A stretch of DNA of 64,000 bases from Streptomyces cynarae (GTDB taxonomy: Bacteria; Actinomycetota; Actinomycetes; Streptomycetales; Streptomycetaceae): positions 6,912,001-6,976,000 of the forward strand of contig NZ_CP106793.1 in the NCBI RefSeq assembly GCF_025642135.1, read 5' to 3'. Positions within the stretch are counted from its first letter, which is position 1, and each line of letters starts with the position of its first letter. Positions 18,553 to 31,065 of the stretch are shown one piece after another. The translations under genes were made by a program, and so were the position numbers. The notes beneath the pieces were generated by a model. The model worked only from the letters and a program-made list of their open reading frames with translations. It had not been told where the DNA came from and searched no databases.

Positions 18553-19629
18553 TCAGGACGTATCGGCAGGAACCATTCCGAACCCGATGAAACTCACCAC
18601 CCAGTACACGACGTACAGCGCGAGCAGCGCGAAACCGTGCCGGCGCCTGAGCCGCCCGGTGGAGATGACATACGCCGCGAACCCGTTCACCACGAGCAGC
18701 GCGGGCAGGTGCCAGGTCAGGACGCTCCGGTCGATGACCACGCTGCCTGCCAGCAGCACGATGCCGAGCTTGCCCGTGACCGAGAAGACGACGCTGCCGA
18801 TGACGTTGCCGACCCCGATCTCCGGTGCCCCCTTCCGGGCCGGTTCCACGGTCAGGAAGACGTCCTCGACCGTCAGCACCACCGTCACGATGGTCGCGCC
18901 GAAGACGGTTCCCTGAAGCCCGTACGTCTGCAGGATGCCCTTGGTGCCGATGCCGGTGATGGCGGAGCCGGCGACGAGGCCGGCCAGGGCGAGCACCGCG
19001 AGGCCGAGCCCCGTCCAGCCGGACCGTTCGCGCACCTGGGCGAGCAGCCCGTCACCCGGCGGTGCTCCCGCGCAGGTCCGTTCCGCCGTGATCGCGCGGG
19101 CGTCCGCCCCCCGGCGGACCGGTGGGGCGTCCCTGGAGCCCCGGGCGAGGGAGTACGCCTCGTACAGCTCCGCGTCCCGGAACACCGGTGTGTCGTCCCG
19201 CGACTCCCGGACCGCCACATAGGCGAGGAACAGCGCGAACAGCCCGAGGAGCGCGACGCCGTCCAGAGCGGTGAGCGGCGCGGTCAGCGCGCACACGACC
19301 ATCACGAGGGGCGCGCAGGCGAAGATCAGGACGTAGTCGCGCGGAATCCTGACGCGGGTGGGCGTGAGGATCGCCGCGAGGGCCAGCACCACTCCCGTCA
19401 TGGACAGCGCGGTCCCGATCACCACACCCAGTGCGACCCCGCCGAGGTCCTCGAAGTTGAGCGCGACGCCGAGGACGATGTCGTCGAACTCGATGCCCGT
19501 GAAGACGACGGACACCAGGAACAGGGAGATGTGGAAGCCGCTCGCGATCCCGACGAGCCGCCGGATCAGCTGCTCGGCGCTGAACACCAGCAGGGCCGCC
19601 CCGGCGACGAACAGCAGGATCGAGGCCAC
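18553..19629 (-). CDS. Sodium/calcium exchanger family (CaCA) membrane protein
   Basis: This 358-aa membrane protein has about ten helices and the two inverted alpha-repeats of the Ca2+/cation antiporter superfamily. The acidic motif of the first repeat is GIEFDDIVLGVALNFEDLGG and of the second TVEDVFLTVEPARKG, followed by VGNVIGSVVFS. A cytoplasmic loop of about 60 residues separates them. GTG 19629 is the likely start, only 7 bp after the pqqE stop and without its own strong ribosome site, so it appears translated with the pqq genes. Its place suggests it moves a cation used by the PQQ enzyme (Ca2+ or a lanthanide); that role is inferred. Confidence 0.8.
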   Translation of the reverse strand: MASILLFVAGAALLVFSAEQLIRRLVGIASGFHISLFLVSVVFTGIEFDDIVLGVALNFEDLGGVALGVVIGTALSMTGVVLALAAILTPTRVRIPRDYVLIFACAPLVMVVCALTAPLTALDGVALLGLFALFLAYVAVRESRDDTPVFRDAELYEAYSLARGSRDAPPVRRGADARAITAERTCAGAPPGDGLLAQVRERSGWTGLGLAVLALAGLVAGSAITGIGTKGILQTYGLQGTVFGATIVTVVLTVEDVFLTVEPARKGAPEIGVGNVIGSVVFSVTGKLGIVLLAGSVVIDRSVLTWHLPALLVVNGFAAYVISTGRLRRRHGFALLALYVVYWVVSFIGFGMVPADTS

Positions 19630-19636
19630 GGCGGAC

Positions 19637-20728
19637 TCACACCCGACGGCCCGGATGCGGCCGGGGCGCAAGGACGTGCTCTCGCCGCCCGGCCGCCTCG
19701 TCGGCCGCCCGCACCGCCGCGGCGACGATCCCGTGGTCGGGGGACAGGTGGCACACCGGGTCGGTGCGGGCGGCGTCGCCGGTGAGCAGGAACGCCTGGC
19801 AGCGGCACCCGCCGAAGTCGACCTCGCGGCGCGGACAGCTCCGGCAGGGCTCCGGCATCCAGTCCGTGCCGCGGAAGCGCTGGAACAGGGGTGAGCTCTC
19901 CCAGATCCATGCCAGGGAGTGCTCGCGCACACTGGCGCGGGGCAGCGGCAGCGCGTGCGCGGGCGGGCAGGGCAGCACATCCCCGTTCGGGACCACGGTG
20001 AGCTGCCGCCGGCCCCAGCCGCCCATGCAGGGCTTCGGGTACCGGCCGTGGTAGTCGGGGACGACGTAGATGATCTCCATCCGGTCCCTGAGGCGTATCC
20101 GTGCCGCACGCACCACCGGCTCGGCGCGCGCCAGCTGGGCCGTGCTGGGCAGCAGGGCTTCCTTGTTGCGCCAGGCCCATCCGTAGTACTGGGTGTTGGC
20201 CAGCTCGACGCGATCGGCTGCCAGTTCCTCGGCGAGGGCGAGGATGCGGTCGATGCGGTCGATGTTGTGCCGGTGGAGCACCACGTTGACGGTGAGGGGC
20301 CAGCCCAGGTCCTTCACCAGCCGGGCCGCCGCCGTCTTGCGGGCGAAGGACGGCGTTCCGGCGATGCGGTCGGACAGCGCCGGCTCGTCGGCCTGGATGC
20401 TGATCTGCACATGGTCCAGGCCCGCGGCGCGCAGCTGCTCGGCACGGCGGGGCGTCAGGCCGGCCGCACTGGTGATGAGGTTGGTGTACAGCCCGAGGTC
20501 ACCGGCGTGGCGCACGATCTCGACGAGGTCGCGGCGCACCAGCGGCTCACCACCGGACAGGTGCAGCTGCAGCACCCCGAGACCGGCGGCCTCGGTCACC
20601 ACCCGCCGCCACTCCTCGGTCGTCAGCTCGTCCCCGAAGTCACCGAGGTTCAGCGGGTTGGAGCAGTACGGGCAGTGCAGCGGGCACGCGTACGTGAGTT
20701 CGGCCAGCAGCCCGAGCGGTTCATCCAT
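19637..20728 (-). CDS. pqqE: PQQ biosynthesis radical SAM enzyme PqqE
   Basis: This 363-aa radical SAM/SPASM enzyme joins the Glu and Tyr side chains of the PqqA peptide in the first step of PQQ synthesis. The radical SAM cluster motif is ACPLHCPYC near residue 16. The SPASM region shows CMGGWGRR, LPCPPAH and CRSCPRREVDFGGCRCQAF. Length matches the family. ATG 20728 overlaps the pqqD stop by 8 bp. It acts in the cytoplasm with PqqD as peptide chaperone. Confidence 0.95.
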   Translation of the reverse strand: MDEPLGLLAELTYACPLHCPYCSNPLNLGDFGDELTTEEWRRVVTEAAGLGVLQLHLSGGEPLVRRDLVEIVRHAGDLGLYTNLITSAAGLTPRRAEQLRAAGLDHVQISIQADEPALSDRIAGTPSFARKTAAARLVKDLGWPLTVNVVLHRHNIDRIDRILALAEELAADRVELANTQYYGWAWRNKEALLPSTAQLARAEPVVRAARIRLRDRMEIIYVVPDYHGRYPKPCMGGWGRRQLTVVPNGDVLPCPPAHALPLPRASVREHSLAWIWESSPLFQRFRGTDWMPEPCRSCPRREVDFGGCRCQAFLLTGDAARTDPVCHLSPDHGIVAAAVRAADEAAGRREHVLAPRPHPGRRV

Positions 20729-21017
20729 CACCGACCTCCACGCATCGCCGGGCGGCGAGCCGGGCCAGGAACAGCCGGACCTCGTCGCCGGCCACATGGG
20801 CGTACCGCCCGCTCAGCTCAGCGACGATCTGGGTGACCGTCCGCTCGCCGTCGCACAGGTCCAGGATCGCCGCGCCCGTGCCGTTCAGAACGGAGACCGC
20901 CTCCGGCGCGAGCAGGACGTGCCGCCCGCGCGCCGGGTCGTAGGCCAGCCGGACGTGCGGCGCGAGGCGGGGACGGTCCGTGTCACCGACCGTCCGCACA
21001 GGACCGTTCGATGGCAT
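20721..21017 (-). CDS. pqqD: PQQ biosynthesis peptide chaperone PqqD
   Basis: This 98-aa protein is a RiPP recognition element that carries PqqA to PqqE. The PqqD fold is visible in RPRLAPHVRLAYDPARGRHV, LLAPEAVSVLNGTGAAIL and the helix DGERTVTQIVAELSGRY. The ATG at 21017 overlaps the end of pqqC by 35 bp, with GGAG at suitable distance. GTG 20999 is an alternative start that would remove the first six residues. It overlaps pqqE by 8 bp. Confidence 0.93.
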   Translation of the reverse strand: MPSNGPVRTVGDTDRPRLAPHVRLAYDPARGRHVLLAPEAVSVLNGTGAAILDLCDGERTVTQIVAELSGRYAHVAGDEVRLFLARLAARRCVEVGDG

Positions 21018-21678
21018 CGAGCATGCTCCACAGGACGTCGCACTTGAAGGACAGGGCGGCCAGGGCGCCCGCCCGCTCCGCCGGGCTGCCGCAGTACGCC
21101 GTCACCACTTCCAGGGCGTGCTCGGCGTCGCGGGGGGCCTGGGTCAGGCGGGACCGGAAGTAGGCGAGCCCCGGGCGGTCGATCCACGGATAGTGGCGTT
21201 CGAACGCGGTGAGCCGTTCGGCCATCAGGTCCGGCGCGAACAACTCGGTCAGCGAGGACGCCACCGCCTCGGTCCACGGCCGGGTACGGGCGAAGGTGAC
21301 GTAGGCGTCGACGGCGAACCGCACCCCGGGGACGACGTGCCGGTCGTCCCCCATCTCCTCCCGGGTCAGCCCCAGCGCCTCGCCCAGGCGCAGCCAGGCC
21401 TCGATACCGCCCTCGCCGTCCGCGGTGCCGTCCTGGTCGACGATGCGCAGGATCCAGCGGCGGCGCACCTCGCGGTGGGGGCAGTTGGCGAGGATCGCGG
21501 CGTCCTTGCGGGGCAGGTTCTCCTGGTAGTAGAAGCGGTTCGCCGCCCACGCCTGGAGCTGCCGACGGGTCAGCGCGCCCGCGTTCATCGCCCGGTGGAA
21601 GGGATGCCGGTCGTGGTAGCGGCGGGACTGCGCGCGCAGCGCCGCCACGAATTCGTCGGTTTCCGTCGCCGTCGCCAT
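20983..21678 (-). CDS. pqqC: Pyrroloquinoline-quinone synthase PqqC
   Basis: This 231-aa enzyme catalyses the last step of PQQ synthesis, ring closure and eight-electron oxidation with O2, without a metal. It is all-helical with family motifs YHDRHPFHRAMNAG, NRFYYQENLPRKDAAILANC, RRRWILRIVDQDG and GRPGLAYF-like IDRPGLAYFRSRL. Active-site His and Arg residues are in place. ATG 21678 starts 5 bp after the pqqB stop. Length is slightly below proteobacterial PqqC, as expected for actinobacteria. Confidence 0.95.
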   Translation of the reverse strand: MATATETDEFVAALRAQSRRYHDRHPFHRAMNAGALTRRQLQAWAANRFYYQENLPRKDAAILANCPHREVRRRWILRIVDQDGTADGEGGIEAWLRLGEALGLTREEMGDDRHVVPGVRFAVDAYVTFARTRPWTEAVASSLTELFAPDLMAERLTAFERHYPWIDRPGLAYFRSRLTQAPRDAEHALEVVTAYCGSPAERAGALAALSFKCDVLWSMLDAIERSCADGR

Positions 21679-21683
21679 GGCCC

Positions 21684-22568
21684 TCAGATCCACAGGTCCA
21701 GCCCGTCCACGGCGACCTCCATGCCGTGTCGCTCGACGGCGCGCCGCTCGGGCGAGTCCTCGAGCAGGACGGGGTTCGTGTTGTTCAGATGGGTGTAGAT
21801 CGTGCGCTCGACGGGGAGCGGGGACAGCTGCTGCAGGCTGCCGCCGGGGCCGGAGATGGGCACGTGGCCCATCTCCCGGGCGGTCCGGTGCCCCCTGCCG
21901 AGCCGGATCAGCTCCTCGTCGTCCCAGCACGTGCCGTCGACCAACAGACAGGCGCAGTCCGCGAGTCGGTCGCGCACCTCGGGGGTGAGCTCCTGGACGC
22001 AGGGCAGGTACACCAGGGCCCGGCCACTGTGCTCGTCGGTCAGGCGGTAGCCGACCACCCGCCCCTGCCCGGCCCCGTCGTCGGAGCCGAAGCGGGCCCG
22101 TTTCCTCGTGGGCACGTCGAACGCCCGGTACGACAGCCCCTCCGCGAGCGGCACGTCGGTCTCCGGCTCGACCGGGTGCCAGGTGACCGGGCAGTAGGCG
22201 AGGAGCGTCCGCAGCAGCGAGGTCCCGTCGTACAGCGTGTCGTGCACCACCTTGGTGGCGTGCAGCTCGATGCCCTCCGCCTCCCGGAGCAACAGCAGAC
22301 CGAGCGTGTGGTCGAGCTCGGCATCGGTGAGCACGACGACCAGCGCCGCGGTGGGGCGCAGGGCGGGGTACGACTCGATCTGCGCCCGGACGTCCGGAGA
22401 GGCGTTGAACAGGAACCAGACCCGTCCGTCGGTGCTCACGGCGATCGACGACTGGGTGCGCGCACGGCACGGCCGGGAGCCGTCCCGCACCGCACGGCAC
22501 GGCGGGCAGGCGCAGTTCCACTGCGGGAAACCGCCCCCGGCCGCCGAACCCAGCACGCGCACCCACAC
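21684..22568 (-). CDS. pqqB: PQQ biosynthesis hydroxylase PqqB (metallo-beta-lactamase fold)
   Basis: This 294-aa metallo-beta-lactamase-fold protein hydroxylates the Tyr-derived ring of the PQQ precursor. Marks are VLGSAAGGGFPQWNC, the zinc-type CACPPC with a second Cys pair, the LTDAELDHTLGLLLLRE strand, LLVDGTCW, MGHVPISG and the late His in THLNNTNP. GTG 22568 is the start, 43 bp after the pqqA stop. It lies in the pqqABCDE order found in most PQQ producers. Confidence 0.95.
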   Translation of the reverse strand: MWVRVLGSAAGGGFPQWNCACPPCRAVRDGSRPCRARTQSSIAVSTDGRVWFLFNASPDVRAQIESYPALRPTAALVVVLTDAELDHTLGLLLLREAEGIELHATKVVHDTLYDGTSLLRTLLAYCPVTWHPVEPETDVPLAEGLSYRAFDVPTRKRARFGSDDGAGQGRVVGYRLTDEHSGRALVYLPCVQELTPEVRDRLADCACLLVDGTCWDDEELIRLGRGHRTAREMGHVPISGPGGSLQQLSPLPVERTIYTHLNNTNPVLLEDSPERRAVERHGMEVAVDGLDLWI

Positions 22569-22611: not shown

Positions 22612-22737
22612 TCATCCCCCGTCGGGCTCCCACACGCCCATGTAGGCGGTCACCTCGGCGGACACGCTGATCTCCTCGAACACAGGGGTCTCCCACTCGT
22701 CCAGGCACGCCTGGTCGATGACGCTCTCCCGGTCCAC
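22612..22737 (-). CDS. pqqA: PQQ precursor peptide PqqA
   Basis: This 41-codon gene starts at GTG 22737 behind a very strong ribosome site (AGGAGGAGGTGA). Its product ends VSAEVTAYMGVWEPDGG and contains the required Glu-x3-Tyr pair (E28, Y32) that PqqE cross-links and that becomes PQQ. Immediate placement ahead of pqqB confirms the call. It is longer than the 23-39 residues usual for PqqA, with nine residues after the Tyr. The strong ribosome site fits the need to make the precursor in excess. Confidence 0.92.
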   Translation of the reverse strand: MDRESVIDQACLDEWETPVFEEISVSAEVTAYMGVWEPDGG

Positions 22738-22811
22738 GGCTGTCACCTCCTCCTGTGTCTCGCGCTTCCCTGACGTCTTCGGTCGCAGGCAGCACAGCGG
22801 GGGCCGCCGCG

Positions 22812-24491
22812 CTACTGCGGGAGTGCGAAGGCGAACACCGCGTCGCCGTGGGAGGCGCCGAGCATCGCCGGAACGATCCCCTCGATCCAGCTGCCCCAGC
22901 CGACCGGCACGGCGATGAACTGCCTTCCGTCGACGCTGTAGGTCGTCGGACTGCTGTGGTGCCCGCTACCCGTCTGGAACTCCCACAGCGGCTCCCCGGT
23001 GCGCGCGTGGAACGCGGTGAACTCCCCGGACGGCCTGCCGACGAACACCAGGTCTCCGGCCGTCGCCAGCGCCGACGCGCTCATCGGCGTCTCGTTGCGC
23101 CACCTCCACACCTCCTCGCCCGTGGCGGCGGAGATGGCCTTCACGAACCCCTGCATGTCGTCGGCGTCCACCGTGACGCTCGCGCCCCAGTAGGGGATGC
23201 TCTCCTTGAACTCCCTGTGACGCAGGGTGACTTCCGAGCCGACGTCCTGCACCGGCACGTAGAACATCTCCGTGCGCGGGCTGTAGGCCGCGTGCGTCCA
23301 CTCCTTGGCCCCGGCGGGACCCGGCCAGAAGTGGACCGGCTCGCCCTCCTTATCCGGGACCACCTTGGGCGTCACCCGGCCGTCACCGTCGATCTCACCC
23401 CAGGTGATGCGTTCGCCGAAGGGCGTGATCCGCACCCGCTCACCGTTCCTGCGGTCCAGCGTGAAGAGGTATCCGTTCTTGTCGAAGTGGGCCAGCAGCT
23501 TCTGCCCGTCCAGGTCGTAGAGGATGCACTCCATGTTGCTGTCGTAGTCCCACACGTCGTGCGGGGTGCACTGGTAGTGCCAGCGGATCTCGCCGTTGTC
23601 GGGATTCAGGGCGATGATGCTGTCGGTGTAGAGGTTGTCGCCCTCACGCACGGCCCCGTCGAAGTCGGGTGCCGGATTGCCGGTCCCCCAGTAGACGAGG
23701 TTCAGCTCCGGGTCGTAGGTGCCGGTGACCCAGGCGTTGCCGCCGCCGCGCGCCCAGGCCGGGCCGTCCGGCCAGGTGTCCGATCCCGGCTCGCCGGGCT
23801 TGGGCACCGTGTAGGTGCGCCAGGCGCGCTCCCCCGTCTCGATGTAGTAGGCGTCGAGGTGACCCCGCACTCCGAACTCCCCGCCCGAGCTGCCCACGAT
23901 GATCTTGTCCTTCACGACGAGGGGTGCGACCGTGGCGCTCTCGGCCGCCCGTACGTCACCGTTCGTCGTATCCCAGACGAGCTCGCCCGAGACGGCGTCG
24001 AGGGCGATCACATGGGCGTTCAGCGTGGTGGCGAGGACCTTCCCGTGTGCGACCGCGACCCCGCGGTTGACGTTGCCGCAGCAGAGGGAGACGTCGAAGG
24101 GGATCGCGTGCTTGTACTGCCACAGTTGCCGCCCCGTCCGGGCGTCGACGGCCCAGACCCAGCCGTCCCAGCCGGAGAGGTACATGACCCCGTCCACGAC
24201 GATCGGCGCGGCCTCGAAGGCGTAGGTCGACTGGCCCGCGTGGAAGCCGGACGAGCCGAACTGGAACACCCAGGCGGGAGTGAGGCGCTGGACGTTCTCG
24301 GTGTTGATCTGGTCCAGCGGACTGTACCGCTGCCCGTCGTAGGCACCGTAGTAGGTCAGCCAGTTCTGCGGCTCGGAGCGCGCCCGGAGAATGCGTTCGT
24401 AGGTCACGTCCTGTGCCACCGGCGGCGCAGTGCCGACCATGGTGCTCAATGCGGCGAAATTGACGGCAGGCGGCGCGTCAATGTACTCCAT
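22812..24491 (-). CDS. PQQ-dependent alcohol dehydrogenase (lanthanide-type Asp)
   Basis: This 559-aa quinoprotein of the eight-bladed beta-propeller family oxidises alcohols with PQQ. Seen directly: the vicinal Cys pair SLCCGNVNRGVA that packs on PQQ, the metal-ligand Glu in GGEFGVRGHL, the ligand Asn in GTGNPAP, and the catalytic Asp in HDVWDYDSN. In that motif the residue two after the catalytic Asp is also Asp, the feature that marks lanthanide-dependent XoxF-type enzymes, where MxaF-type calcium enzymes have Ala. No signal peptide or membrane helix is visible at the N-terminus (MEYIDAPPAVNFAALS), unusual for this family. It lies 74 bp upstream of pqqA and 54 bp downstream of its partner gene. 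Confidence 0.9.
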   Translation of the reverse strand: MEYIDAPPAVNFAALSTMVGTAPPVAQDVTYERILRARSEPQNWLTYYGAYDGQRYSPLDQINTENVQRLTPAWVFQFGSSGFHAGQSTYAFEAAPIVVDGVMYLSGWDGWVWAVDARTGRQLWQYKHAIPFDVSLCCGNVNRGVAVAHGKVLATTLNAHVIALDAVSGELVWDTTNGDVRAAESATVAPLVVKDKIIVGSSGGEFGVRGHLDAYYIETGERAWRTYTVPKPGEPGSDTWPDGPAWARGGGNAWVTGTYDPELNLVYWGTGNPAPDFDGAVREGDNLYTDSIIALNPDNGEIRWHYQCTPHDVWDYDSNMECILYDLDGQKLLAHFDKNGYLFTLDRRNGERVRITPFGERITWGEIDGDGRVTPKVVPDKEGEPVHFWPGPAGAKEWTHAAYSPRTEMFYVPVQDVGSEVTLRHREFKESIPYWGASVTVDADDMQGFVKAISAATGEEVWRWRNETPMSASALATAGDLVFVGRPSGEFTAFHARTGEPLWEFQTGSGHHSSPTTYSVDGRQFIAVPVGWGSWIEGIVPAMLGASHGDAVFAFALPQ

Positions 24492-24545
24492 GGGATCCTC
24501 CTTGCCGACCCGGCGGCCACCGGGTGGCCTTTTCCCGGGCGGCCT

Positions 24546-24995
24546 CTACGGCCGTGGCTGTTCCGGGCGGTCGAGGCGGGCCTCCTGTGGAACGTCCCCC
24601 ATCACCGCGATCACGCCGACGAGGCCGCGCCCCTCGTCGTTGCCGACGTTGGAGCCGAACCAGTAATAGCCGGGGCCGTCCAGGTTGAGCACGGTCTTTC
24701 CCCGTGAGTACACCGGAAGCCACATCCATTTGCTGTCGCCGTTGCTCGGCAGGAGCGCGCAGTGTGTGTTCGTGTCGTCGTTGAGGAGTTCGATCTCCAG
24801 ATCGCCCCCATGGGGCATGACGACGATGGAGGGCTCCCACATCAGCTCGTCGGGCGGAATCCGCACATGGGCGTGCAGACGGCCGTCGGAACCTTCCTCG
24901 GCCCGGCCGAGGCCTCCGTGGGCGAGGAGCCGACCCAGCGTCGCCTTGTTCTGCCCGTACAGCTCGGGCAGTTCCTGCTCGGCTCTGGTCGTCAT
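24546..24995 (-). CDS. MSMEG_3727-family PQQ-associated protein, cupredoxin-like
   Basis: This 149-aa protein resembles the actinobacterial family found beside PQQ alcohol dehydrogenases. The likely fold is a cupredoxin-type beta-sandwich (VVMPHGGDLEIELLNDDTN, then VLNLDGPGYYWFGSNVGND). The usual Cys-His-Met copper set at the end is not present, so copper binding is doubtful. There is no signal peptide. It is the first gene of the PQQ transcript (ATG 24995). A role as electron acceptor or structural partner of the dehydrogenase is inferred from position alone. Confidence 0.7.
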   Translation of the reverse strand: MTTRAEQELPELYGQNKATLGRLLAHGGLGRAEEGSDGRLHAHVRIPPDELMWEPSIVVMPHGGDLEIELLNDDTNTHCALLPSNGDSKWMWLPVYSRGKTVLNLDGPGYYWFGSNVGNDEGRGLVGVIAVMGDVPQEARLDRPEQPRP

Positions 24996-25323: not shown

Positions 25324-28320
25324 ATGCCCTCCGTGAGGGAAGTGAGCGCGGTGTCCGTCGCCTGGGACGACATCGGCGGTCTCGTCGATGCCCATGAGCG
25401 TTTTCTTGCCGGCGCGCGAGTCGACACGGACGTACGGGGTTCGGTGCTCGAATCCTGGCAGCGTTGCAGGTTCCAGGGGGTGCAGCCGCATCGCCTCCTG
25501 GTGCCCTACGCCGCGGACCTGGCGCTGGACGACCGTCTCCTGCGCGCGGCCGACCCCGTCCTGAAGGACCTCACCACGTCGCTCGCCAACGTGAGCATGG
25601 CGATCGCGTTCAGCGACGCGCGGGCCCGCATGATCCAGCGGCACGGCGGTGACCGGCAGTTGCGCGAGCGCCTCGACGCGGTGAACTTCGCCCCGGGATT
25701 CGACGCCTCGGAGCGGGCCGCCGGCACCAACGGCGTCGGCACCGCGCTGGCCGGGCGGGGCCCGATCTACGTGGTCGGCCGCGAACACTTCGCCGACTGC
25801 CTGCAGCCCTTCGCCTGTGCGGGCGCACCGATCCGCGACCCGCTCAGCGGGCGCATCGAGGCCGTGCTCGACCTCACCTGCCTGCGGGAGGACGGCGACC
25901 CCGCGATGCTGCGGCTGGTGCGTCAGGCCGCCCGCGACATCGAGGGACGGCTGCTGGAGCAGGCCACGGAACGCGAACAGGCCCTGCTCGCCGCCTACCG
26001 GCGTGCCTGCCGCGACATGGGCGGCACCGTCGGCTGGCCACGGCAACCGCAGGGCGTGGGGAACGGGTTTCCCGACGGCGGCACCCTCAGCCGGATCGAC
26101 ATGGCGGTGCTGCGGGAGAAGGCCGAGGAGCTCATCGCTTCGCCTCAGCGCACCCTCGACGAGGTGGCCCTCTCCGGCGGACGCGTAGCCACGCTGCTGC
26201 GCCGCCAGGTCATGGGAGCGGCCGGTGAGAGCGGAGTGGTCGTCGAGGCCAGGGTCCACGGCGGCCCGCACCTGCGCCACGTCGAACTCGCCGCACCTTC
26301 GGAGCCGGCACCGCTCACCGCCCCGTCCGCGTTCACCCCGCCCGCGACCACGTTCACCCCGCCCGCCCCCGCCGCGTTCACCCCGCCCGCGCCGACCGCG
26401 TTCACCCCGTCCGTCGCCGGGGACACGAGCGCGGCACCTCCGGTCCTCCTGCGCGCCGTCGCCCCGGCGCCCGCGGCCACGGCGACCGTCCCGTCGCCGA
26501 CGGAAACCGCTCCACCGCCGCCCGCCCCCACCGAGGCGGGCCCGCAGCCCCGTGCGGACGAGGGCGAGAGCGGTACCGGTGCCGAGGGCTGGCTGCTGCT
26601 CGTCGGTGAGCCCGGCGTCGGCCGCCTGGCGGTCCTGGCCCGCAAGCGCCTGGAGCTGCTGCACGACGCCAGCGTGCGCATCGGCACGACTCTGGACGTC
26701 ACCCGCACCGCGGAGGAACTGGCGGAGGTGACCGTCCCCCGGTTCGCCGACCTGGCGGTCGTCGACCTTCCCGACTCCGTTCTGCTCGGAGAGGAGCCGG
26801 GGCCGCTCGGCGGTCACAGCCCGCTGCGCCGGGTCGCGCTCGGCAGCGTGCGCGAGGAACTGCCCGTGTACGGCATCGGCGACCTCGTCCAGTACGTGCC
26901 GTCCACCCCGCAGGTCCGCTGCCTGGAGACCGGGCAGTCCGCACTCGAACCCGTCCTGTCCGAGGCCGAGGGCTGGATCGCCCAGGATCCGGCGCGGTTC
27001 GGACGGGCACTGACCGAGGGCATCCACTCCCTGATCACCGTGCCCCTGCGGGCCCGCGGCACGATCCTCGGCGTGGTGAGCTTCTACCGTTCCGAGAAGC
27101 CCACCCCCTTCGAGGACGACGACCTGTCCCTCGCCCAGGAACTGGCCGGCCGCGCGGCGATCTCCATCGACAACGCCCGCCGCTACACGCGCGAGCACAA
27201 CACCGCACTCGCACTGCAACGCAGTCTGCTGCCCCGGGGCCGGCCCGAGCAGAACGCCGTCGAGGTCGCCTACCGCTACCTGCCCGCGCAGGCAGGAGTC
27301 GGCGGCGACTGGTTCGACGTCATCCCGCTGTCCGGCGCCCGGGTGGCCCTGGTGGTCGGCGACGTCGTCGGGCACGGACTGCACGCCGCGGCCACCATGG
27401 GCCGGCTGCGCACCGCCGTGCACAACTTCTGCTCCCTGGACCTGCCGCCCGACGACCTCCTCACCCACCTCGACGACCTGGTCGGACGCCTGGACCGGGG
27501 CGAGGGCTGGGCTGTGGAGCCCACCTACCCGGACGCCGGGATCGTCGGCGCCACCTGTCTGTACGCCGTCTACGACCCGGTGTCCCGGCGGTGCACCCTC
27601 ACCCGGGCCGGCCACCCGGTCCCCGCGGTCGTCGGCCCCGACGGCGGCGTGGACTTCGTCGACCTGCCGTCGGGCCCGCCGCTCGGGCTCGGCGGGACGC
27701 CGTTCGAGACGGTCGAGCTGGAGCTGGCCGAGGGCAGCCAACTGGTGCTCTACACCGACGGTCTGATCGAGGACCGGGTACGGGACATCGACACCGGCCT
27801 GGACAAGCTCCGCAGCGTCCTGGCCTGCCCCGGCCGGGCGCCGGAGGACACCTGCGAGGCCGTCCTCGACGCCCTGCTCCCGACCCGGCCGAGCGACGAC
27901 GTGGCCCTGCTCGTGGCCCGGACGCATGCGCTCGGCCCGAAGCGGGTCGCCGAGTGGGAGTTCCCGAGCGATCCGGCCGTCGTCTCCCGCGCGCGGGAGG
28001 CGGTCCTCGGCCAGATGTCCGCCTGGGGCCTGGACGAACTCGGCTACACCACCGAGCTGGTCGCCAGCGAGCTGGTCACCAACGCCATCCGGCACGCCAC
28101 CGGCCCCGTCCAGCTGCGCCTCCTTCGGGACCGCGCGCTGATCTGCGAGGTCTCCGACGGCAGCAGCACCTCGCCCCGGCTGCGGCGCGCCCGGAACGAG
28201 GACGAGGGCGGGCGCGGACTGTTCCTCGTCGCGCAGCTCACCGAGCGCTGGGGAACCCGCTACACCACCGACGGCAAGATCATCTGGACCGAACAGTCCC
28301 TGGAACAGCCCCTGTCCTGA
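25324..28320 (+). CDS. AcoR-type GAF / PP2C phosphatase / ATPase regulator
   Basis: This 998-aa soluble protein joins several modules. Residues about 30-220 match the N-terminal sensor of AcoR-type activators of acetoin and alcohol genes (VLESWQRCRFQGV, DASERAAGTNGVGTALAG), without their sigma-54 ATPase. A Pro-rich linker at about 330-400 has repeats of AFTPPAP. Then come a GAF domain (about 440-610), a SpoIIE-type PP2C phosphatase (about 640-850, GGDWFDVIPL, VVGDVVGHGLHAAATMG, TLTRAGHPVPAVV, YTDGLIEDR) and an anti-sigma-type histidine-kinase-like ATPase (about 870-990, ASELVTNAIRHA, GRGLFLV). Such proteins act in partner-switching control of sigma factors. It is divergent from the PQQ alcohol dehydrogenase operon and may sense the same substrate; that link is inferred. 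Confidence 0.88.
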   Translation: MPSVREVSAVSVAWDDIGGLVDAHERFLAGARVDTDVRGSVLESWQRCRFQGVQPHRLLVPYAADLALDDRLLRAADPVLKDLTTSLANVSMAIAFSDARARMIQRHGGDRQLRERLDAVNFAPGFDASERAAGTNGVGTALAGRGPIYVVGREHFADCLQPFACAGAPIRDPLSGRIEAVLDLTCLREDGDPAMLRLVRQAARDIEGRLLEQATEREQALLAAYRRACRDMGGTVGWPRQPQGVGNGFPDGGTLSRIDMAVLREKAEELIASPQRTLDEVALSGGRVATLLRRQVMGAAGESGVVVEARVHGGPHLRHVELAAPSEPAPLTAPSAFTPPATTFTPPAPAAFTPPAPTAFTPSVAGDTSAAPPVLLRAVAPAPAATATVPSPTETAPPPPAPTEAGPQPRADEGESGTGAEGWLLLVGEPGVGRLAVLARKRLELLHDASVRIGTTLDVTRTAEELAEVTVPRFADLAVVDLPDSVLLGEEPGPLGGHSPLRRVALGSVREELPVYGIGDLVQYVPSTPQVRCLETGQSALEPVLSEAEGWIAQDPARFGRALTEGIHSLITVPLRARGTILGVVSFYRSEKPTPFEDDDLSLAQELAGRAAISIDNARRYTREHNTALALQRSLLPRGRPEQNAVEVAYRYLPAQAGVGGDWFDVIPLSGARVALVVGDVVGHGLHAAATMGRLRTAVHNFCSLDLPPDDLLTHLDDLVGRLDRGEGWAVEPTYPDAGIVGATCLYAVYDPVSRRCTLTRAGHPVPAVVGPDGGVDFVDLPSGPPLGLGGTPFETVELELAEGSQLVLYTDGLIEDRVRDIDTGLDKLRSVLACPGRAPEDTCEAVLDALLPTRPSDDVALLVARTHALGPKRVAEWEFPSDPAVVSRAREAVLGQMSAWGLDELGYTTELVASELVTNAIRHATGPVQLRLLRDRALICEVSDGSSTSPRLRRARNEDEGGRGLFLVAQLTERWGTRYTTDGKIIWTEQSLEQPLS

Positions 28321-29216: not shown

Positions 29217-29735
29217 GTGACGTCCACTCCCACGCCGCCGGGTCTCGCCCGCTTCAACGCCGCGGAAGAACCCGCGGCCCGCGCCGCCCTCCACGAGGTG
29301 TGCGCGTCCACGGCCTGGGCCGGACGGCTGCTCGCCGGGCGCCCCTACGCCACCGCCGAAGACCTCTACGCCGCGAACGACGCCGCCATGGCGGGGATGA
29401 CCACCGCGGATCTCGAGGAGGCCATGGCCGGGCACCCGCCGATCGGACGGCCCAAGCCGGGCGATCCCGCCTCGGCACGTGAGCAGCGGGGCATGGCCGG
29501 CGCCTCCGACGAGCTCAAGGCGGAGATGCTCGAGCTGAACCTGGCGTACCAGGAGAGGTTCGGCCATGTCTTCCTGATCTGCGCGACCGGGAAGACCGGC
29601 GAGCAGATGAGGGACGCGGTCAAGGAGCGGATCGGCAACGCGCCGGAGCAGGAACGGGAGATCGTCCGCACCGAGCTGGGCAAGATCAACCGCATCCGGC
29701 TGGCACGCATCGTCGAAGAGGGCGACCACGCATGA
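29217..29735 (+). CDS. uraD: OHCU decarboxylase
   Basis: This 172-aa enzyme decarboxylates 2-oxo-4-hydroxy-4-carboxy-5-ureidoimidazoline to S-allantoin, the third step from urate. Family residues are visible in GHPPIGRPK (catalytic His), ASAREQRGM and ERFGHVFLICATGKTG. All-helical composition and length fit. GTG 29217 is the start, with CGGAGG upstream. Its stop overlaps the uraH start (ATGA). It is the first gene of the urate operon uraD-uraH-uox-deaminase. Confidence 0.94.
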   Translation: MTSTPTPPGLARFNAAEEPAARAALHEVCASTAWAGRLLAGRPYATAEDLYAANDAAMAGMTTADLEEAMAGHPPIGRPKPGDPASAREQRGMAGASDELKAEMLELNLAYQERFGHVFLICATGKTGEQMRDAVKERIGNAPEQEREIVRTELGKINRIRLARIVEEGDHA

Positions 29736-30139
29736 GCAATCGCACCACCGCCTCCGTGTCCACGCACATCCTGGACACCAGCATCGGCCGCCCCGCCACG
29801 GGCGTCGCCGTCCGCCTCGCCGCCCGTCCCGGCCGGGACGCGGACTGGCAGGCGCTCGGCGGCTCCACGACCGATGCGGACGGCCGGTGCAAGGACCTTC
29901 CGGCCCTGCCGGAGGGGACGACCCACGTACGGCTCGACTTCGCGGTCGAGGCGTACTTCGAGAGGTCCGACAAGAAGCAAGCCGATGCGCAGCAGGACGC
30001 CCCCGCGAATCGGGACAGCGGTGCGCGAGGAGTGTTCTTCCCGGAGGTGACGGTCACGTTCGCCGTCGTGCCCGGGGAGCACTACCACGTACCGCTGCTG
30101 CTCACCCCGTTCGGCTACTCCGTTTACCGAGGGAGCTAG
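29732..30139 (+). CDS. uraH: 5-hydroxyisourate hydrolase
   Basis: This 135-aa transthyretin-like enzyme hydrolyses 5-hydroxyisourate, the urate oxidase product, to OHCU. It has the N-terminal signature VSTHILDTSIGRPATGVAVRL, the central FFPEVTVTF strand and the C-terminal tetrapeptide YRGS that defines the family. A slightly extended loop (SDKKQADAQQDAPANRDSGA) distinguishes it from short homologues. ATG 29732 overlaps the uraD stop. It sits 5 bp ahead of the urate oxidase gene. Confidence 0.95.
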   Translation: MSNRTTASVSTHILDTSIGRPATGVAVRLAARPGRDADWQALGGSTTDADGRCKDLPALPEGTTHVRLDFAVEAYFERSDKKQADAQQDAPANRDSGARGVFFPEVTVTFAVVPGEHYHVPLLLTPFGYSVYRGS

Positions 30140-30144
30140 CACAC

Positions 30145-31065
30145 ATGGCAGCAGTCAATTCCCGCCCGGCCCGCCCCGTACTGGGACAGAACCAGTACGG
30201 CAAGGCCGAGAACCGGGTCGTCAGGATCACGCGGGACGGCGCCACCCACCACATCAAGGACCTCAACGTCTCGGTGTCGCTGAGCGGAGACATGGACGAG
30301 GTCCACTACTCGGGTTCCAACGCCAACGTGCTGCCGACCGACACCACCAAGAACACGGTGTACGCGTTCGCCAAGGAGCACGGCATCGACTCCGCCGAGC
30401 AGTTCGGCATCCATCTCGCCCGCCACTTCGTGACCTCGCAGGAGCCGATCCACCGGGCCCGCATCCGCATCGAGGAGTACGCCTGGGACCGGATCGAGCA
30501 CTCCGGGGAGGGCGCGCACTCCTTCCTCCGCACAGGCCAGGAGACCCGCCTGACGCAGATCACCTACGACGGCTCGTCCTGGGAGGTGGTCTCCGGACTG
30601 AAGGACCTGACGGTGATGAACTCCACCGACTCCGAGTTCTGGGGCTACGTCAAGGACAAGTACACGACGCTGCCCGAGGCCCACGACCGCATCCTGGCCA
30701 CCTCCGTCACCGGCCGCTGGCGCTTCAACTGGACCGACGACGCCCAGGAGGCGCCGGACTGGGAGACGTCCTACGAGGATGCGAAGAAGCACCTGCTCCG
30801 GGCCTTCGCCGAGACCTACTCCCTCTCCCTGCAGCAGACGCTGTACCAGATGGGCGCCCGCATCATCGAGCATCGCTCCGAGATCGACGAGGTCCGCTTC
30901 TCGCTCCCGAACAAGCACCACTTCCTGGTGGATCTGGAGCCGTTCGGGCTGAAGAACGACAACGAGGTGTACTTCGCCGCCGACCGCCCCTACGGCCTGA
31001 TCGAGGCCACCGTCCTGCGGGAAGGGTGCGAGGCACGGATCCCGGTGGACCTCACCAACCTGTGA
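30145..31065 (+). CDS. uox: Urate oxidase
   Basis: This 306-aa cofactor-free uricase converts urate and O2 to 5-hydroxyisourate and H2O2. It carries the two tandem T-fold halves with the signature KAENRVVRI (catalytic Lys), TDTTKNTVYAFAKEHG (Thr and His), SVTGRWRF and LPNKHHFLVDLEPFGLKND. Length is normal for the family. The ATG at 30145 follows GGGAGC. The frame is open further upstream but overlaps uraH there. It is third in the urate operon. Confidence 0.96.
   Translation: MAAVNSRPARPVLGQNQYGKAENRVVRITRDGATHHIKDLNVSVSLSGDMDEVHYSGSNANVLPTDTTKNTVYAFAKEHGIDSAEQFGIHLARHFVTSQEPIHRARIRIEEYAWDRIEHSGEGAHSFLRTGQETRLTQITYDGSSWEVVSGLKDLTVMNSTDSEFWGYVKDKYTTLPEAHDRILATSVTGRWRFNWTDDAQEAPDWETSYEDAKKHLLRAFAETYSLSLQQTLYQMGARIIEHRSEIDEVRFSLPNKHHFLVDLEPFGLKNDNEVYFAADRPYGLIEATVLREGCEARIPVDLTNL

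What the first reader, a model, noticed from the sequence alone, without database searches (positions are those of the whole stretch)
22812..24995. PQQ alcohol dehydrogenase with a lanthanide-type active site and no export signal
The active-site motif HDVWDYDSN has the extra Asp two residues after the catalytic Asp that marks lanthanide-dependent XoxF and PedH enzymes. Metal-ligand Glu and Asn and the Cys-Cys pair are all in place. The enzyme and its cupredoxin-like partner both lack visible signal peptides, whereas known PQQ dehydrogenases work outside the cytoplasmic membrane. A rare-earth, possibly cytoplasmic, alcohol oxidase in Streptomyces would be notable.
Basis: partly seen in the sequence, partly recalled or inferred. 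Interest (0 to 1): 0.8.

Follow-up and report, generated by a model that had tools for sequence, protein, structure and literature searches.

The report
Cytoplasm-type PQQ alcohol dehydrogenase, lanthanide-like site
A Streptomyces gene pair that belongs to a widespread but unstudied actinobacterial group of PQQ alcohol-oxidising enzymes, which carry a rare-earth-type metal site and, unlike the well-known PQQ dehydrogenases, appear to stay inside the cell.

Summary
Window 22812-24491 (-) encodes a 559-aa PQQ dehydrogenase (TIGR03075) with Glu205, Asn272, catalytic Asp315, extra Asp317 and Cys137-Cys138. A 149-aa partner (TIGR04339, named after MSMEG_3727) precedes it; pqqABCDE and a Na/Ca-exchanger gene follow. 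The pair is thus a known but untested kind: 80 named loci encode relatives (70-99% identical), 79 with the partner. The missing export signal is a clade feature: none of 80 selected N-termini reached the hydrophobicity of 11 of 14 controls, and the N-terminus is conserved. One subgroup (L097, P0029, P0079) may carry an anchor. Neighbours fit a cytoplasmic enzyme: katG nearby in 40 of 80 loci, an MntP- or CaCA-type transporter in 60, no recognised cytochrome c. Corrections: Asp+2 is suggestive, not diagnostic (E. coli Gcd has it, and the clade groups with neither XoxF nor PedH); the partner has a cupredoxin fold but lacks the copper-ligand loop, so it is unlikely to be a copper electron acceptor. 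Best reading: a cytoplasmic, probably lanthanide-capable alcohol dehydrogenase, possibly reoxidised by O2. Metal, location and acceptor remain untested.

The parts
22812..24491 (-). PQQ-dependent alcohol dehydrogenase, methanol/ethanol family, 559 aa, no signal peptide seen
   Evidence: TIGR03075 620 bits, cut-off 480; closest solved relative by sequence PedH 6zcv/6zcw; fold match PedH E 1.3e-46 (model pLDDT 76.6); start and SD
23541..23549 (-). codons of D315 (catalytic) to D317 (the lanthanide-type +2 Asp) in HDVWDYDSN
   Evidence: both Asp invariant in 201 of 201 aligned rows
24078..24083 (-). vicinal Cys pair C137-C138
   Evidence: 200 of 201 and 201 of 201 rows
23877..23879 (-). metal ligand E205
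   Evidence: 201 of 201 rows; aligned with PedH/XoxF/MxaF Glu
23676..23678 (-). metal ligand N272
   Evidence: 201 of 201 rows
23478..23480 (-). K338, where XoxF/PedH/MxaF/ExaA have Arg and quinohaemoprotein ADH has Lys
24546..24995 (-). MSMEG_3727-family partner, 149 aa, predicted cupredoxin fold with the copper-ligand loop replaced, no signal peptide seen
   Evidence: TIGR04339 250 bits, cut-off 75; PF23509; model pLDDT 82.9; fold matches; ligand columns
22612..22746 (-). PqqA precursor peptide, 44 aa, with ExxxY (EVTAY; motif recalled)
   Evidence: ORF; SD; tblastn relatives at this place in many named loci, at a relaxed threshold of E up to 10
21684..22568 (-). pqqB
   Evidence: TIGR02108 374 bits
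20983..21678 (-). pqqC (ATG start, 231 aa)
   Evidence: TIGR02111 316 bits; start
20721..21017 (-). pqqD
   Evidence: TIGR03859 77 bits
19637..20728 (-). pqqE (radical SAM)
   Evidence: TIGR02109 523 bits; start with SD
18553..19629 (-). CaCA-type sodium/calcium exchanger directly after pqqE (GTG start likely)
   Evidence: PF01699 E 6.9e-26; recurrent beside the cluster elsewhere
25324..28320 (+). divergent GAF-SpoIIE-ATPase protein; its N-terminal part (about residues 15-228) resembles the N-terminus of LytTR-domain regulators found at many related loci
   Evidence: Pfam; tblastn of this protein against named loci

Best explanation
This is the MSMEG_3726/3727-type PQQ alcohol dehydrogenase operon. 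The enzyme and its small partner fold and stay in the cytoplasm, where PqqA-E make PQQ. The enzyme binds PQQ with a metal held by E205, N272, D315 and D317, probably a lanthanide or at least able to take one, and oxidises a primary alcohol to the aldehyde. The partner is a cupredoxin-fold protein without a copper-ligand loop that most likely binds or assembles the enzyme rather than carrying electrons. With no recognised cytochrome c encoded nearby and no export, reduced PQQ is probably reoxidised by a cytoplasmic acceptor; O2 giving H2O2, removed by catalase-peroxidase, is the leading guess. A cation transporter of CaCA or MntP type tunes the metal supply or removes excess. Shown here: sequence features, gene order, clade-wide lack of signal, lost copper ligands, katG and transporter linkage. 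Inferred: location, metal, acceptor, partner role.
For: Active-site residues invariant in 201 of 201 rows, C137 in 200. None of 80 selected N-termini above 1.61 in peak hydrophobicity, against 1.85 or more in 11 of 14 controls; no RR in the first 35 residues in 80 of 80. The N-terminal extension is conserved (Y3 in 194, A6 in 193, P23 in 201, V25 in 197 of 201 rows), unlike a signal peptide. The clade has a mean of 7.6 Cys against 2-4 in the mature part of 13 of 14 controls (but see against). Partner adjacent in 79 of 80 loci. katG in 40 of 80, 37 of them upstream and co-directional. MntP or CaCA in 60 of 80; MntP with a CaCA hit of 50% identity or more in 0 of 80, Fisher p 9e-8 without correction for kinship. 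CxxCH ORFs in 3 of 80 loci, none resembling cytochrome c by eye. The only TIGR03075 enzyme over the cut-off in this genome.
Against: No experiment. The window's own locus lacks katG; its two katG genes lie over 1 Mb away. The window enzyme has only 4 Cys, and four of the seven PDB yardsticks, all exported enzymes, have 4 to 7 (XoxF1 6, XoxF2 7, MxaF 4 and 6), so the Cys argument is weak. katG linkage is concentrated in Streptomyces and Pseudonocardiaceae and could answer H2O2 from PqqC or PQQ redox cycling. One subgroup has a possible N-terminal membrane anchor (L097; P0029, P0079), and the L097 partner starts with a mildly hydrophobic extension too. The vicinal disulfide would be unusual in a reducing cytoplasm. 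D+2 also occurs in E. coli Gcd. Cytochromes under 90 aa were not looked for.
Confidence: 0.5

Rival explanations
1. The enzyme and partner are exported by an unrecognised route (non-classical secretion, hitch-hiking on another protein or anchoring) and work at the outer face of the membrane like other PQQ dehydrogenases.
For: The well-characterised PQQ dehydrogenases are extracytoplasmic (recalled; stated for XoxF in a passage of PMC10875860). A subgroup has an N-terminal hydrophobic segment. The vicinal Cys pair, a disulfide in known members (recalled), is kept. Exported XoxF and MxaF chains can hold 4-7 Cys.
Against: No signal, no RR motif and a conserved soluble N-terminus across 80 loci; the partner is also signal-less in the window and, by the same measure, at most 1.55 in 79 loci; no cytochrome c recognised nearby.
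Confidence: 0.2
2. A cytoplasmic PQQ dehydrogenase that uses Ca2+ or Mg2+; the +2 Asp is an ancestral residue without lanthanide selectivity.
For: E. coli Gcd has HDLWDMD and is known as a Ca/Mg enzyme (recalled; PMC11996626 passages predict facultative Ln use for it). The +2 Asp is scattered over several clades. K338 resembles quinohaemoprotein ADH, not XoxF or PedH.
Against: In the seven PDB chains used, D at +2 goes with lanthanide enzymes and A, S or T with Ca enzymes (metal labels partly recalled). Cytoplasmic Ca2+ is scarce (recalled), and a Ca exchanger or Mn efflux gene is a neighbour in 60 of 80 loci.
Confidence: 0.25
3. katG and the transporters respond to PQQ synthesis or another locus function, and the enzyme's electrons go to a membrane quinone or an unlinked carrier.
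For: PqqC itself makes H2O2 (recalled). katG was not seen in half the loci, including this one (flanks are short in some).
Against: 37 of 40 katG genes lie upstream in the direction of partner-adh, on the enzyme's side of the row rather than next to pqqC.
Confidence: 0.35

Closest known systems
MSMEG_3726 / MSMEG_3727 pair of Mycobacterium smegmatis (TIGR03075 with TIGR04339)
   Same: PQQ-ADH within a pqq cassette (Haft 2011, PMC3023750 passages); MSMEG_3721-3727 given as PQQ synthesis and PQQ-ADH genes (PMC6529628 passages); the partner family bears the name MSMEG_3727
   Different: The passages seen report no function, and PMC6529628 argues against overlap with ethanol growth there; they do not mention signal peptides, katG or cation transporters. 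I did not fetch or compare the M. smegmatis sequences themselves.
PedH (lanthanide ethanol dehydrogenase, PDB 6zcv, 6zcw)
   Same: Best solved match by sequence and fold, about 43% identity over 521 positions; same metal ligands including Asp at +2
   Different: PedH is periplasmic (PMC6839425 abstract start); Arg where this clade has Lys338; separate clade in the tree
XoxF methanol dehydrogenases
   Same: Asp at +2, Glu and Asn ligands, Cys pair
   Different: 36-38% identical in the XoxF5-annotated row and the XoxF1 and XoxF2 chains; separate clade; signal-like N-terminus; c-type cytochrome gene beside it in L145
Cupredoxins and CuA domains (for the partner)
   Different: The C-terminal ligand loop has no Cys, His or Met as window or majority residue (GNDEGRGL instead)

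Membership tests
[quoted passage not shown]
   619.9 bits, cut-off 480.05
[quoted passage not shown]
   E205, N272, D315, C137-C138
MSMEG_3727 PQQ-associated family (TIGR04339) | score above the curated cut-off and PQQ-ADH neighbour | tested here: met
   250.4 bits, cut-off 75; gene order
Lanthanide-dependent XoxF/PedH enzymes | Asp two residues after the catalytic Asp | tested here: met
   D317, 201 of 201 rows
Lanthanide-dependent XoxF/PedH enzymes | placement inside the XoxF or PedH clade | tested here: not met
   family branch separate from both (support 94/92, just under the starred level; several long branches in the set)
Lanthanide-dependent XoxF/PedH enzymes | export signal | tested here: not met
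   no signal-like segment by a hydrophobicity measure; no signal-peptide predictor was available
Lanthanide-dependent XoxF/PedH enzymes | activity with Ln3+ | not testable with these tools
   needs purified enzyme
Ca-dependent MxaF/ExaA/quinohaemoprotein ADH | Ala, Ser or Thr at +2 | tested here: not met
   Asp317
Copper cupredoxin (partner) | cupredoxin fold | tested here: met
Copper cupredoxin (partner) | Cys-His-Met ligand loop near the C-terminus | tested here: not met
   no loop column has H, C or M as window or majority residue in 80 rows

The most novel reading that the evidence does not exclude
A clade of cytoplasmic, lanthanide-using PQQ alcohol oxidases in Actinomycetota that pass electrons to O2 and are paired with catalase-peroxidase and a cation exporter, with a small cupredoxin-fold partner that lost copper and may serve in loading the lanthanide or PQQ. 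It would be the first cytoplasmic PQQ dehydrogenase and the first cytoplasmic lanthanide enzyme that I know of.
Probability: 0.22. Interest if true: 0.88.

Novelty: new variant of a known kind. Interest (0 to 1): 0.62.

Why it matters
PQQ dehydrogenases and lanthanide enzymes are taught as extracytoplasmic systems tied to cytochrome c (recalled). A conserved clade that lacks export signals in enzyme and partner, keeps the lanthanide-type site, and sits beside catalase-peroxidase and cation transporters would put PQQ and perhaps rare-earth catalysis inside the cell. It would also give soil Actinobacteria, where lanthanides are known to affect secondary metabolism (recalled), a concrete enzyme target. 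The question is directly testable with one purified protein and one fractionation.

Tried and rejected
Missed upstream start with a signal: rejected for the window. In the 80 loci, 15 have an in-frame start 12 or more codons upstream; only the L097 extension is hydrophobic (1.93), the other 14 reach at most 1.01. Starts were chosen by a simple rule (nearest start, SD favoured), not by a gene finder.

Copper electron carrier for the partner: set aside, since the ligand loop is empty. Some rows have a Cys just before the loop (GPGCYW), four or five residues ahead of the place of the copper Cys as I align it by eye. A profile of the partner reached pseudoazurin only at E 0.29 and a copper oxidase at 0.18, a single sequence found nothing in the PDB up to E 10, and 12 of 40 members touch Pfam Cupredoxin_1 weakly (best E 0.017).

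Cytochrome c partner: CxxCH ORFs in 3 of 80 loci, by eye a thioredoxin-reductase-like protein (two loci) and a zinc ADH, from a heuristic ORF set of 90 aa or more. Four of 14 control regions with 600-base flanks have an annotated c-type cytochrome.

Cys content as a mark of location: kept only as weak support, because the PDB yardsticks of exported XoxF and MxaF hold 4-7 Cys.

Controls without a signal-like segment: L154, L159 and L156. The first two start at about the mature N-terminus and may be mis-started; L156 is archaeal. They were kept in the count of 14.

MSMEG_3726 and MSMEG_3727 gave one paper each. MSMEG_3721 gave PMC6529628 again and a phage paper about another gene under a different numbering. 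Searches for PQQ with Streptomyces, Mycobacterium/Actinobacteria, rare earths, cytoplasm/Gram-positive, and katG with Pseudonocardia showed no title on a cytoplasmic PQQ dehydrogenase or on this operon among the papers listed; some searches listed only 25 of 38, 12 of 97 and 15 of 2,661. Only open-licence papers are held. Passages were seen of PMC3023750, PMC6529628, PMC10875860, PMC11996626, PMC10409515 and PMC1796659; the rest were seen as listings.

Not searched: lanthanide uptake or lanmodulin genes in the genome; spread of the family outside Actinomycetota, apart from L087 (labelled Bacillota) and L138 (Bacterium HR26) met.

Tree caveats: L039 and L042 (other actinobacterial PQQ proteins) are very long branches with possibly wrong starts. 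21 of the 80 loci were chosen by hand as family rows.

Full report
WHAT IS THERE. On the minus strand the window carries one gene row: partner 24546-24995, PQQ dehydrogenase 22812-24491, pqqA 22612-22746, pqqB 21684-22568, pqqC 20983-21678, pqqD 20721-21017, pqqE 19637-20728 and a CaCA-type exchanger 18553-19629. A GAF-SpoIIE protein diverges at 25324-28320. The dehydrogenase scores 620 bits on TIGR03075 (cut-off 480) and the partner 250 bits on TIGR04339 (cut-off 75). This is the only TIGR03075 protein over the cut-off in the 9.36-Mb genome. The closest named locus is Streptomyces sp. Y2F8-2 at 99% (records very near the window's genome may be left out there).

ACTIVE SITE. Residues are C137-C138, E205, W254, N272, D315, D317 and K338. 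All but C137 (200) are invariant in 201 of 201 rows: the window, 80 named loci, and the 120 listed of 7,984 homologues, with overlap. Among seven PDB chains used as yardsticks, Asp at +2 goes with lanthanide enzymes (PedH, XoxF1, XoxF2) and Ala, Ser or Thr with Ca enzymes (metal labels for MxaF, ExaA and quinohaemoprotein ADH recalled). But Asp at +2 also stands in E. coli Gcd (HDLWDMD), an enzyme I recall as Ca/Mg-dependent, and in control rows of unknown metal in other clades. Voutsinos et al. (PMC11996626, passages) treat D-x-D as an assumed indicator of at least facultative Ln use, Gcd included. K338 matches quinohaemoprotein ADH, while XoxF, PedH, MxaF and ExaA have Arg.

KINSHIP. By sequence and by fold the closest solved enzyme is PedH (model pLDDT 76.6, its first 17 residues under 50), about 43% identical over 521 positions. 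In a 46-row tree the family forms its own branch (length 0.58, support 94/92), outside the XoxF/MxaF, PedH/ExaA and quinohaemoprotein groups; some long branches in the set make the deep order unsure. So the metal cannot be read from clade membership.

A KNOWN KIND. Haft 2011 (PMC3023750, passages) named MSMEG_3726 as the lone PQQ-ADH of M. smegmatis, in the cassette of the PQQ genes. PMC6529628 (passages) gives MSMEG_3721 to 3727 as genes for PQQ and its alcohol dehydrogenases, with evidence against overlap with ethanol growth in its conditions. In my sampling TIGR04339 is in 9 of 199 Streptomyces genomes, own genome included, and over the cut-off in 11 of 396 genomes of the phylum. TIGR03075 is over the cut-off in 9 of 396, and all nine have the partner family over its cut-off.

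NO EXPORT SIGNAL, CLADE-WIDE. In 80 named loci the peak 12-residue hydrophobicity in the first 40 residues has median 0.92 and maximum 1.61; 14 controls (13 proteobacterial, one archaeal, all from plasmids) give 1.85 or more in 11. No RR in the first 35 residues in 80 of 80. The first 30 residues are conserved in sequence, which signal peptides are not (recalled). Exceptions: L097 has an upstream ATG with an SD that adds MPLKGKQLSALGIGSMCAAGVIAAVRKSRENHGQQKH, and P0029 and P0079 of the 120 listed homologues are alike; this may be an anchor. Cys content is 7.6 on average in the clade against 2-4 in 13 of 14 controls, but the window protein has only 4, and exported XoxF and MxaF chains of the PDB have 4-7, so this is weak support. 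The haloarchaeal control L156 also lacks a signal-like segment and has 9 Cys. The partners look alike: the highest value among 79 is 1.55, shared by L138 and by L097 with an N-terminal extension.

PARTNER. It is found in 79 of 80 loci, all but L118. AlphaFold2 gives pLDDT 82.9 and a cupredoxin fold. A His at the place of the first copper ligand is kept in 80 of 80 rows, the next Cys in 76, and H62 in 76; but the C-terminal loop, which in copper proteins holds Cys, His and Met, reads S-x-x-GNDEGRGL with none of them as window or majority residue. The tail ARLDRPxQPRP is nearly invariant. I infer a binding or assembly role, not electron transfer.

NEIGHBOURS. Of 80 loci, 40 have katG (family checked on one representative), 37 of them upstream and co-directional. 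MntP-like genes are in 42 and CaCA genes in 20, one or the other in 60. Two loci have both, L087 and L093, where the CaCA hit is only 31% and 26% identical; with CaCA hits of 50% or more (18 loci) the overlap is 0 of 80 (Fisher p 9e-8, kinship not corrected). This genome has CaCA in the operon and no MntP over the cut-off, and two katG genes over 1 Mb away. Flanks differ in length (69 of 80 loci have 3.5 kb or more upstream of the ADH), so katG may be undercounted. No locus showed a recognisable cytochrome c among ORFs of 90 aa or more.

MECHANISM. Shown: the parts, their conservation and their order. Inferred: PQQ is made and loaded in the cytoplasm; the metal is probably Ln3+ or promiscuous; the alcohol is oxidised; the reduced cofactor is reoxidised by a cytoplasmic acceptor, O2 being the leading guess because of katG. 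PqqC-derived H2O2 or PQQ redox cycling would also explain katG. The transporter may keep competing Ca2+ or Mn2+ low or expel excess metal. I give about 0.65 to cytoplasmic location (0.7 before I weighed the Cys counts of the PDB chains), 0.6 to Ln use, and 0.3 to O2 as acceptor.

VERDICT. Observation confirmed; interpretation partly supported. It is a new variant of a known kind: the family was named before, but I saw no description of the clade-wide lack of export with a lanthanide-type site, an emptied cupredoxin partner, katG and alternating cation transporters in what the searches showed me.

Noticed in passing
L156 (Halomarina sp. plasmid), 466-2178: A haloarchaeal PQQ-type dehydrogenase with the motif HDVWDYDSA, no signal-like segment and 9 Cys, about 38% identical to the window enzyme; possibly another cytoplasmic PQQ-like protein.
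   Followed up: partly
window 29217-31065, + strand: A urate-degradation row: OHCU decarboxylase, HIUase and uricase (also an H2O2 producer), close to the PQQ operon.
   Followed up: partly
L160 (E. coli gcd): E. coli membrane glucose dehydrogenase carries the D-x-D motif taken as a lanthanide mark.
   Followed up: partly
L097 upstream of 9001; P0029, P0079: A subgroup of the family with an N-terminal hydrophobic stretch between basic residues, possibly a membrane anchor; the L097 partner also has an N-terminal extension.
   Followed up: partly
L074, L076, L083, L090, L102, L113, L117, L119, L123, L134: tblastn found no pqqB at these loci although pqqC follows the dehydrogenase (and pqqD and pqqE too in 7 of the 10).
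   Followed up: no
L157, Streptomyces sp. NBC_01483 1.56-Mb linear plasmid: A relative of the dehydrogenase gene (72% identical) is carried on a giant linear plasmid typed as mobilizable, so the system may move.
   Followed up: no
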